A DNA stretch of 64,000 bases from Myxococcales bacterium (GTDB lineage Bacteria > Myxococcota > Polyangia > Nannocystales > Nannocystaceae): positions 52,353 through 116,352 of the forward strand of contig JAEUJW010000086.1 of NCBI GenBank assembly GCA_016793465.1, written 5' to 3'. This document shows positions 57,097 to 59,053 of the stretch, piece after piece. How positions within the stretch are numbered: position 1 is the stretch's first letter; each line of letters starts with the position of its first letter. The position numbers and the translations under genes were made by a program. The notes below the pieces were generated by a model, which ran no database searches, was not told where the DNA came from, and saw only the letters and a list, made by a program, of their open reading frames with translations.

Positions 57097-58713
57097 GTGC
57101 CGTCCGTGAGCGCGCCCGAGGAAGAACTGCGGCGGAAGATCGCCGACGCCGGCTACACGCCGGGACGCGGCGACCTGCCGCGGGTCGTCGAATGTCTGCT
57201 CGTCACCGACGACGAGCACGTGCTGCGCGACGTGGAGCGGGCGCTGCTGCGGGCGGGCGCGGCCGCCGGTCCGCCGGTGCTGGCGCGGCTGGCCGGGGCG
57301 CCGGGGCCGGCGCGCGCTCGCCTGACGCGGGTGCTGGGGCGGCTCGCGGTCGGGGACCCGTCGCTGCGCGGGCCGCTGCTGGCGCGGCTCGACGACGACG
57401 ACGTGAAGACGCGGCGCAACGCGGTGGTGGCGCTCGGCAAGCTGCACGGGGCCGGGGCCGAGGTCGACGCGGAGATCTCCGCGGCCCTGCTGGCGCGCGC
57501 GCGCCAGGAGACGCGGCCCGAGCTGCTGCGCAGCTTCGCCGAGGCGCTCGGCAAGGCGGGCGGACCCGCGGCGCAGGAGTGGCTGGCGGGGCTCGAGTCG
57601 GCGGACCCGGAGCTGCAGCGCCTGCGCGGCCGGGCGCAGCTGATGTTGCAGCGCAGCCTCAGCCGCGGGGTCAACGCGGCGGACATCGACGTGGACGCGG
57701 TGGCGAGCGCGCCGCGCGAGCTGCTGGCGACCTGTCGACCTGGCCTCGAGGACATCCTCGCCGGGGAGCTCGACCCGCGCTGGCAGGCGCGGTCGATCGG
57801 CGCGGGGCGGGTGACGCTGACCACGGCCGGCCCGCTGGCGGCGATCGTCAAGGCGCGCACGCTGCTGACGATCGGCTTCCCGCTGCCGCTGCGCCGGCTG
57901 GCGCCGGACGAATTGGTCCCGGCGCTCGTCGAGGTGCTGGCCGGTCCGGAGGCGGGCGAGATCTTCGCGACATGGACGAAGGGACAGGTCCGCTACAGGC
58001 TCGCGTGGGCGCGCGGGGGCCATCGCCGGGCGGTCGTCTGGCAGGTCGCCGAGGCGCTCACGAAGGCTTGCCCTGAATTGGTGAACGATCCGACGGCGAG
58101 CGGGTGGGAGGTGATCGTCGACGACGCCGGCGGCGCGCTGCGGGTCGAGCTGCGGCCGCGCTGGAAGGACGAACGGTTCAATTATCGGGTCGGGGACGTG
58201 CCGGCGGCGTCGCACCCGACGCTGGCCGCGGCGCTGGCCCGCATGGCCGGGGTGCGGGCCGACGACGTGGTCTGGGACCCGTTCGTGGGCTCGGGGCTCG
58301 AGCTGGTCGAGCGCGGGCTGCTCGGGCCGTACGCGCGGCTGCACGGGAGCGACGTCGACGCGCGGGCGCTGGCGATCGCCGGCGCCAACCTGACGGCGGC
58401 GGGGCTCGAGCGCCACGAGCTGGTCGAGGGCGACGCGACCGTGTACGCGCCGGCGCGGCCGACTTTGATAATTACGAACCCGCCGATGGGCCGTCGCGTC
58501 CACCGCGGGGACGTGTCGCCGCTGCTGACGAGCTTCGTCGAGCACGCGGGCGCGGTGCTGCGACCGGGCGGGCGCATGGTGTGGATCTCCCCGCTGCCCC
58601 GCGCGACCCGAGGCCCGGCCGTCGAGGCCGGCCTCCGCTGCCGCCGGACTCAGCCCGTCGACATGGGCGGGTTCACGGGGCAGCTCGAGGAGTGGATCAA
58701 GCCGGGGAGATGA
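57097..58713 (+). CDS. HEAT-repeat plus THUMP-like/SAM methyltransferase fusion
   Basis: A 538-residue protein. Residues 30-190 look like HEAT repeats (PVLARLAGAPGPARARLTRV; DDVKTRRNAVVALGKL). A region at about 205-355 resembles a THUMP domain (LLATCRPGLEDILAGELDPR), and the C-terminal part is a SAM methyltransferase with DPFVGSG (394-400), GSDVDARAL and NPPMG (461-465), the signature of N-methylation by RlmKL/Trm11-like RNA enzymes. The HEAT extension is unusual. It starts at GTG 57097 or 57106; the gene ends 4 bp before the tRNA-Phe 3' end. Confidence 0.82.
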   Translation: MPSVSAPEEELRRKIADAGYTPGRGDLPRVVECLLVTDDEHVLRDVERALLRAGAAAGPPVLARLAGAPGPARARLTRVLGRLAVGDPSLRGPLLARLDDDDVKTRRNAVVALGKLHGAGAEVDAEISAALLARARQETRPELLRSFAEALGKAGGPAAQEWLAGLESADPELQRLRGRAQLMLQRSLSRGVNAADIDVDAVASAPRELLATCRPGLEDILAGELDPRWQARSIGAGRVTLTTAGPLAAIVKARTLLTIGFPLPLRRLAPDELVPALVEVLAGPEAGEIFATWTKGQVRYRLAWARGGHRRAVVWQVAEALTKACPELVNDPTASGWEVIVDDAGGALRVELRPRWKDERFNYRVGDVPAASHPTLAAALARMAGVRADDVVWDPFVGSGLELVERGLLGPYARLHGSDVDARALAIAGANLTAAGLERHELVEGDATVYAPARPTLIITNPPMGRRVHRGDVSPLLTSFVEHAGAVLRPGGRMVWISPLPRATRGPAVEAGLRCRRTQPVDMGGFTGQLEEWIKPGR

Positions 58714-58717
58714 AGAG

Positions 58718-58790
58718 TGCCCAGGGGCGGAATCGAACCACCGACACGCGGATTTTCAGTCCGCTGCTCTACCGACTGAGCTACCTAGGC
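58718..58790 (-). tRNA. trnF: tRNA-Phe (GAA), at the GC/AT junction
   Basis: A 73-nt cloverleaf read on the minus strand: acceptor GCCTAGG with CCTGGGC, D-arm AGCTCAGTCGGTAGAGC, anticodon loop CTGAAAA (anticodon GAA), T-arm GGTTCGATTCC, discriminator A. No CCA is encoded. The acceptor contains a T4-G69 wobble, whereas each half would pair perfectly with a different partner. It lies exactly where GC-rich sequence turns AT-rich, with its 5' flank AT-rich and its 3' flank GC-rich. Confidence 0.95.
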
Positions 58791-59053
58791 ATTATAGATA
58801 AACATGGTCATTTAATTGCTTGCTGTTGCCTTATAATCAAAAATAATAACAGTGTCCAGCGTAATTTTCTGTTTTATTGAGATGTTTAAACCTTATTTCT
58901 TGGTGGGTTAGATTTAGATATAACAGTTGCAAAAAAGCAACAGTAATTAGAAAAAGACGTATTTATTCACCTAATTCACGTAAAAATATTTTTTGTGTAA
59001 ATAAAATCAATTATAACTTTGCCTGTTAACAATGTAATTATAAGGAACGCCAG
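58791..59053. other. AT-rich gap between tRNA and mlaA
   Basis: About 260 bp of very AT-rich DNA (oligo-A and oligo-T runs) with no reading frame. It should hold the tRNA promoter (leftward) and that of mlaA (rightward), but no box is convincing. Confidence 0.5.

What the first reader, a model, noticed from the sequence alone, without database searches (positions are those of the whole stretch)
58600..58900. Abrupt switch of genome at a tRNA-Phe gene: likely chimeric contig
Left of the tRNA the sequence is myxobacterial, very GC-rich, and its codons end almost always in G or C. Right of it the sequence is AT-rich with alphaproteobacterial genes. The tRNA acceptor stem has a T4-G69 wobble: its 5' half GCCTAGG would pair perfectly with CCTAGGC and its 3' half CCTGGGC with GCCCAGG, as if two different tRNA-Phe genes were joined in their shared middle. 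Integrated islands normally join at the 3' end of a tRNA gene; here the foreign-looking DNA is on the 5' side, and no integrase is present. All of this favours an assembly join over transfer.
Basis: partly seen in the sequence, partly recalled or inferred. Interest (0 to 1): 0.8.

Follow-up and report, generated by a model that had tools for sequence, protein, structure and literature searches.

The report
Two genomes mis-joined at shared tRNA
The abrupt change in this DNA is most likely an assembly error: pieces of a Nannocystis-like myxobacterium and of an AT-rich, probably alphaproteobacterial genome were stitched together inside a phenylalanine tRNA gene that both are inferred to carry, so it is not a biological transfer.

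Summary
GC falls from about 0.75 to 0.34 across a tRNA-Phe on the minus strand (58790..58717). The left side ends as relatives in the family of Nannocystis do: in 8 genomes the same HEAT/RlmL-type methyltransferase gene is followed, convergently, by tRNA-Phe. The window's 46.8-58.7 kb is collinear with four of them up to that tRNA. One family member (L057) has a tRNA-Phe identical to the window's except at nucleotide 4. Past nucleotide 4 everything native disappears: a TTGAC element 40 bases upstream (8 of 8 relatives, absent here), the next conserved gene of Nannocystis, and the base composition. The DNA beyond encodes mlaA, a two-component pair and cobalamin genes whose few named relatives are mostly Alphaproteobacteria; MlaA is absent from 29 of 29 genomes of the family. 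No integrase was found among the proteins scanned. An assembly crossing between two tRNA-Phe genes explains all this. The T4-G69 clue is supportive, not decisive: one of 377 genomes of the phylum carries it naturally. The right-hand genome's own tRNA-Phe could not be fetched and no reads were available, so the join is inferred. Ordinary artefact.

The parts
46834..58713 (.). Myxobacterial chromosome segment (family of Nannocystis), collinear with four genomes (G001, G002, G004, G019) up to the tRNA
   Evidence: tblastn of window ORFs against fetched stretches, same gene order, 48-70% identity
57097..58713 (+). HEAT-repeat / RlmL-like (UPF0020) methyltransferase gene; native neighbour of tRNA-Phe in relatives
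   Evidence: Pfam; homologues; tRNA-Phe downstream in 8 genomes
58717..58790 (-). tRNA-Phe(GAA), inferred chimera: nucleotides 5-74 (58786-58717) identical to the tRNA-Phe of L057, nucleotide 4 T instead of C, no encoded CCA
58714..58787 (.). Interval in which the join must lie if T4 came with the right-hand genome
   Evidence: left limit: end of the methyltransferase gene; right limit: tRNA nucleotide 4
58791..59053 (.). AT-rich spacer on the 5' side of the tRNA; its 60 bases next to the tRNA lack the TTGAC element found 40 bases upstream of tRNA-Phe in 8 of 8 relatives
59054..59830 (+). mlaA (VacJ family lipoprotein), other genome
   Evidence: Pfam MlaA 4.3e-67; the named relatives listed are Alphaproteobacteria; no MlaA in 29 of 29 genomes of the left-hand family
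60024..60716 (+). OmpR-type response regulator, other genome
60685..62079 (+). HAMP sensor histidine kinase, other genome
   Evidence: 96% identical protein (P0241) in another contig set, longest contig 36,385 bases
62076..63098 (-). CobD/CobC-like threonine-phosphate decarboxylase, other genome
   Evidence: just below the NCBIfam cut-off: 281.8 of 290.55 bits
63202..63738 (+). cobU, other genome
63751..63999 (+). cobW, cut by the window end
   Evidence: partial, 83 aa, below the cut-off for the whole protein

Best explanation
The contig is a metagenomic (or contaminated) assembly chimera. A myxobacterium of the family of Nannocystis and an AT-rich bacterium, most likely an alphaproteobacterium, were sequenced together; both carry a tRNA-Phe(GAA) gene with a long identical middle. 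An assembler working on short words entered the tRNA from one genome and left it into the other. The result is a tRNA whose nucleotide 4 and upstream DNA come from the AT-rich genome, and whose remainder and downstream DNA come from the myxobacterium. Shown: the native neighbourhood of this tRNA in the myxobacterial family, its loss at the tRNA's 5' end, and the different origin of what follows. Inferred: that the AT-rich genome has a matching tRNA-Phe there, and that the assembler, not the cell, made the join.
For: Methyltransferase followed by convergent tRNA-Phe in 8 genomes of the family (L001, L019, L029, L039, L056, L057, L058, L078), i.e. 8 of the 17 examined (18 of 29 have a match to the gene; one, L073, was not scanned for tRNAs; some loci are short contigs). 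L057 matches the window over 71 bases, tRNA nucleotides 5-75. TTGAC at -40 in 8 of 8 relatives, absent in the window; GC of the 1 kb 5' of the tRNA 0.67-0.74 in the 8, 0.366 in the window. The RPE65-family gene that lies beyond the tRNA in L001 and four others (86-90% identical) is not there. Collinearity of 46.8-58.7 kb with four genomes. MlaA family absent from 29 of 29 genomes of the family, with E. coli and Caulobacter ringing among the controls. None of five right-hand proteins matches the 11 stretches fetched (E up to 1e-3). Near-identical proteins of either side occur in other public contigs: P0121 (99% to the methyltransferase, longest contig 4,372 bases), P0001 (95% to MlaA, 1,070 bases), P0241 (96% to the kinase, 36,385 bases). 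No integrase or transposase recognised. De Bruijn assembly can join different genomes through shared k-mers (passages of PMC7299287).
Against: No reads, coverage or sample data. The AT-rich organism's own tRNA-Phe locus could not be fetched: no alphaproteobacterial genome was reachable. T4-G69 occurs naturally in one genome of the phylum (L128), so the hybrid stem alone proves nothing. The DNA of the contigs bearing P0121, P0001 and P0241 was not seen, so it is not excluded that one of them holds the same junction. Only 8 of 17 family genomes examined have tRNA-Phe beside the methyltransferase gene, so the arrangement belongs to part of the family.
Confidence: 0.94

Rival explanations
1. A real horizontal transfer: an AT-rich stretch was inserted just 5' of tRNA-Phe in a bacterium of the family of Nannocystis.
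For: The tRNA from nucleotide 5 on and the 12 kb beyond its 3' end are native to that family. [quoted passage not shown]
Against: No integrase or transposase recognised in the 5.2 kb (NCBIfam); five of six right-hand proteins do match PHROGs families, but these are of unknown function, kinase or regulator type, as expected for ordinary host genes. No second copy of the tRNA piece in the window. The tRNA would have lost its conserved upstream element. No sign of amelioration (GC3 0.26-0.33 against 0.94-0.99). The distal end lies outside the window and could not be checked.
Confidence: 0.03
2. The AT-rich bacterium is the host, and a large GC-rich island of myxobacterial origin integrated at the 3' part of its tRNA-Phe, the usual island geometry.
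For: The tRNA is on the minus strand, so the GC-rich side is its 3' side.
Against: The DNA next to the tRNA is the neighbour of tRNA-Phe in the family of Nannocystis, collinear over 12 kb with four genomes. No integrase among 31 of 41 left-hand ORFs scanned (list).
Confidence: 0.01
3. An assembly chimera, but with the tRNA wholly myxobacterial: T4 is a natural C-to-T change and the join lies at or just before the tRNA's 5' end.
For: The 71 bases from nucleotide 5 on are identical to L057; a T4-G69 tRNA-Phe exists in G136 (L128).
Against: C4 in 8 of 8 relatives of the family and in 21 of 22 pattern matches among 282 genomes of the phylum. A join without shared sequence needs another cause, whereas the tRNA middle offers one.
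Confidence: 0.02

Closest known systems
Chimeric contigs of short-read metagenome assembly (joins through shared k-mers)
   Same: Two unrelated compositions and gene sets meet inside a short, highly conserved sequence
   Different: No difference found; the shared sequence here is a tRNA gene. Assembler and data unknown.
Genomic islands in tRNA genes (tyrosine-integrase islands, as catalogued in Islander)
   Same: Boundary lies in a tRNA gene and foreign-looking DNA begins there
   Different: No integrase recognised, no displaced tRNA fragment in the window, ordinary chromosomal genes on both sides, tRNA without the upstream element of its relatives

Membership tests
Assembly chimera at a shared conserved gene | Each side belongs to a different lineage by genes and composition | tested here: met
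Assembly chimera at a shared conserved gene | Join falls within a sequence that both genomes carry | tested here: inconclusive
   Left genome: yes, native tRNA-Phe by relatives. Right genome: its tRNA-Phe could not be fetched.
Assembly chimera at a shared conserved gene | No reads or pairs span the join; depth differs on the two sides | not testable with these tools
   no reads available; no whole genome held for the window
tRNA-integrated genomic island | Site-specific integrase near the tRNA | tested here: not met
   none among 36 proteins scanned with Pfam, 10 of the 41 left-hand ORFs not scanned; PHROGs matches of seven junction-side proteins name no integrase
tRNA-integrated genomic island | Displaced fragment of the tRNA at the other end | tested here: inconclusive
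   no second copy in the window, but the far end may lie beyond 64000
tRNA-integrated genomic island | Host DNA continues beyond the island in the usual order | not testable with these tools
   window ends 5.2 kb after the tRNA

The most novel reading that the evidence does not exclude
A living bacterium of the family of Nannocystis whose chromosome joins a long AT-rich, alphaproteobacterial segment exactly at tRNA-Phe, by recombination between the two tRNA genes and without an integrase.
Probability: 0.03. Interest if true: 0.6.

Novelty: not a real feature. Interest (0 to 1): 0.07.

Why it matters
Taken at face value the contig would suggest an unusual gene transfer and would put mlaA and cobalamin genes into a myxobacterium. 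It should be cut at the tRNA before any gene-content, binning or transfer analysis. As a general point, a sharp composition switch inside a tRNA gene, together with loss of the upstream element that its relatives share, is a cheap flag for such joins.

Tried and rejected
Island at the tRNA, either orientation: rejected on synteny, no integrase recognised, and loss of the upstream element.

T4-G69 as proof of two joined tRNAs: first it looked unique. In one search, 19 of the 22 matches were complete: 18 C4-G69, 1 T4-A69, no T4-G69; 3 were cut at contig ends. In one search, 3 of 377 genomes had an exact T4 pattern: two T4-A69 (one, L127, is the same genome as) and one natural T4-G69 (L128). The two samples overlap and are not summed. 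So the clue was downgraded.

Led nowhere: MlaA relatives in viral contigs (one locus, L081, 38% identical, no tRNA); the 43 bases of the tRNA's 5' part in viral contigs gave only an IMG/VR contig with 21 tRNA genes (L082), whose tRNA-Phe is T4-A69 and shows only that such a stem exists; the junction word in viral contigs, no match. Plasmid and phage searches: I looked at the rows listed (20 of 309, 20 of at least 5000, 20 of 68, 15 of 390 records) and followed two plasmid records; no AT-rich alphaproteobacterial tRNA-Phe locus came up there. One Azospirillum plasmid tRNA-Phe has C4-G69 with encoded CCA. Three paper searches returned listings. I read passages only, of PMC7299287, PMC8371274 and PMC4383910. 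I did not search for a print report of this contig.

Recalled, from no call: that the family and phylum of Nannocystis are Nannocystaceae and Myxococcota (the tool tells only 'family of' and 'phylum of' G001 or G013), and the usual word lengths of assemblers.

Full report
What is there. A tRNA-Phe(GAA) gene lies on the minus strand at 58790..58717. Its 3' end faces the GC-rich left side, its 5' end the AT-rich right side. GC drops from about 0.75 to 0.34 across it. Codon third positions fall from 0.94-0.99 GC in five left genes to 0.26-0.33 in five right genes. Tetranucleotide profiles of left and right are anticorrelated, while a left block (50-55 kb) correlates at 0.98 with each of three loci of the family of Nannocystis (L001, L019, L056). 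A Markov change point gives 58730 as maximum, with a nearly flat top over the tRNA and a steep fall right of 58790.

The left side. The gene that ends 3 bases before the tRNA (57097-58713) encodes a HEAT-repeat, RlmL-like methyltransferase. The named relatives are mostly Nannocystis and other myxobacteria, with a few from elsewhere, such as Lindowbacteria, Lentisphaerae, Spartobacteria and Puniceicoccaceae MAGs. Of 55 loci from genome contigs, tRNA-Phe accompanies the gene in 4, all Nannocystis. In the family of Nannocystis, 18 of 29 genomes matched the gene; of the 17 examined for tRNAs, 8 have tRNA-Phe just downstream in convergent orientation; the others, some on short contigs, do not. The window's 46.8-58.7 kb is collinear with four of the 8 genomes (G001, G002, G004, G019). 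For 0-46.8 kb no ORF matched the stretches fetched (E up to 1e-40), so for that part only composition speaks. The tRNA of L057 (G013) is identical to the window's from nucleotide 5 through 75, 71 bases, and differs at nucleotide 4 (C there, T here). So the tRNA, from nucleotide 5 on, is at home on the left side.

What is missing. In all 8 relatives a TTGAC element starts 40 bases upstream of the tRNA, and the kilobase beyond has GC 0.67-0.74. In the window's 60 bases upstream the element is absent, and the kilobase has GC 0.366. In L001 a conserved gene of the RPE65 family lies beyond the tRNA; it matched at 86-90% identity in four of the six other stretches compared (L019, L029, L039, and L056 in part), and not in L057 and L058, where only about 1.3 kb was compared. 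The window has mlaA there instead.

The right side. mlaA, an OmpR-type response regulator, a HAMP histidine kinase, a CobD/CobC-like gene, cobU and a partial cobW. Among the 120 best MlaA relatives listed, the organism names given are Alphaproteobacteria bacterium, Magnetospirillum and Rhodospirillaceae. Among the 120 best kinase relatives they are Alphaproteobacteria, Rhodospirillales and Aliidongia, and one Gammaproteobacteria MAG. MlaA was found in 0 of 29 genomes of the left-hand family; E. coli and Caulobacter rang among the 14 controls. Near-identical proteins of each side occur in other public contigs (P0121, P0001, P0241), whose DNA could not be read.

The hybrid stem. T4 pairs with G69 as a wobble. 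In 282 genomes of the phylum, 22 matched a tRNA-Phe pattern, 21 with C4. Of the 19 complete ones, 18 are C4-G69, one is T4-A69 and none is T4-G69. In a larger, overlapping draw of 377, three have T4: two T4-A69 and one T4-G69 (L128). L128 has flanks of GC 0.461 (5') and 0.541 (3'), so it is not an obvious chimera itself. The wobble is therefore rare but natural, and counts as support only. If the AT-rich genome has T4-A69, the shared run could be nucleotides 5-68, 64 bases, long enough for common assembler words; that is inference.

Why a join and not a transfer. Read from the left genome, the foreign DNA starts at the 5' end of the tRNA, the rarer side: Islander lists 159 islands with a 5' fragment and 3,760 with a 3' fragment (PMC4383910, table passage), and a review says that expression of the restored tRNA from a new promoter is seldom met in bacteria (PMC8371274, passage). 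But that DNA is the neighbourhood of tRNA-Phe in the family of Nannocystis, so it is not an island. No integrase or transposase was recognised (31 of the 41 left ORFs were scanned). Weak TniB and IstB matches in a ClpB-type protein at 33917-38035 are put down to its AAA domains. Five of six right-hand proteins match PHROGs families of unknown function, kinase or regulator type, which I read as host-type genes that also occur in viral sets. There is no second tRNA piece in the window. Shared k-mers linking genomes and producing chimeric contigs are a described hazard (PMC7299287, passages).

Verdict. An assembly chimera inside tRNA-Phe, join between 58714 and 58787 if T4 came from the right-hand genome. 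Confidence 0.94; reads and the right genome's own tRNA-Phe are the missing pieces.

Noticed in passing
window 16553-23341: Two large proteins with ThiF and weak nitroreductase-type matches (16553-19045 and 20957-23341, + strand) flank two ORFs without Pfam match and with lower GC3 (0.79); recalls a modified-peptide type gene cluster (analogy from memory).
   Followed up: no
window 25017-25108: ARAGORN reports a tRNA of unknown type with a two-base anticodon; Rfam gives no match there at its gathering score, so probably spurious.
   Followed up: partly
window 58104-58880: An open frame of 258 aa runs across the junction and the tRNA; it overlaps the methyltransferase in another frame and is very rich in Arg, Ala and Gly, so taken as a chance frame.
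   Followed up: no
L082 1020-5826: An IMG/VR contig of 56 kb carries 21 tRNA genes in under 5 kb, including a tRNA-Phe with T4-A69 whose first 43 bases equal the window's apart from one.
   Followed up: no
L128 (G136:C272:31113): A genome of the same phylum has a tRNA-Phe with a natural T4-G69 wobble and encoded CCA.
   Followed up: partly
upstream of tRNA-Phe in L001, L019, L029, L039, L056, L057, L058, L078: TTGACGSC at -40 and a CGTASSAC stretch nearer the tRNA are conserved in 8 of 8 relatives, a likely tRNA promoter.
   Followed up: partly
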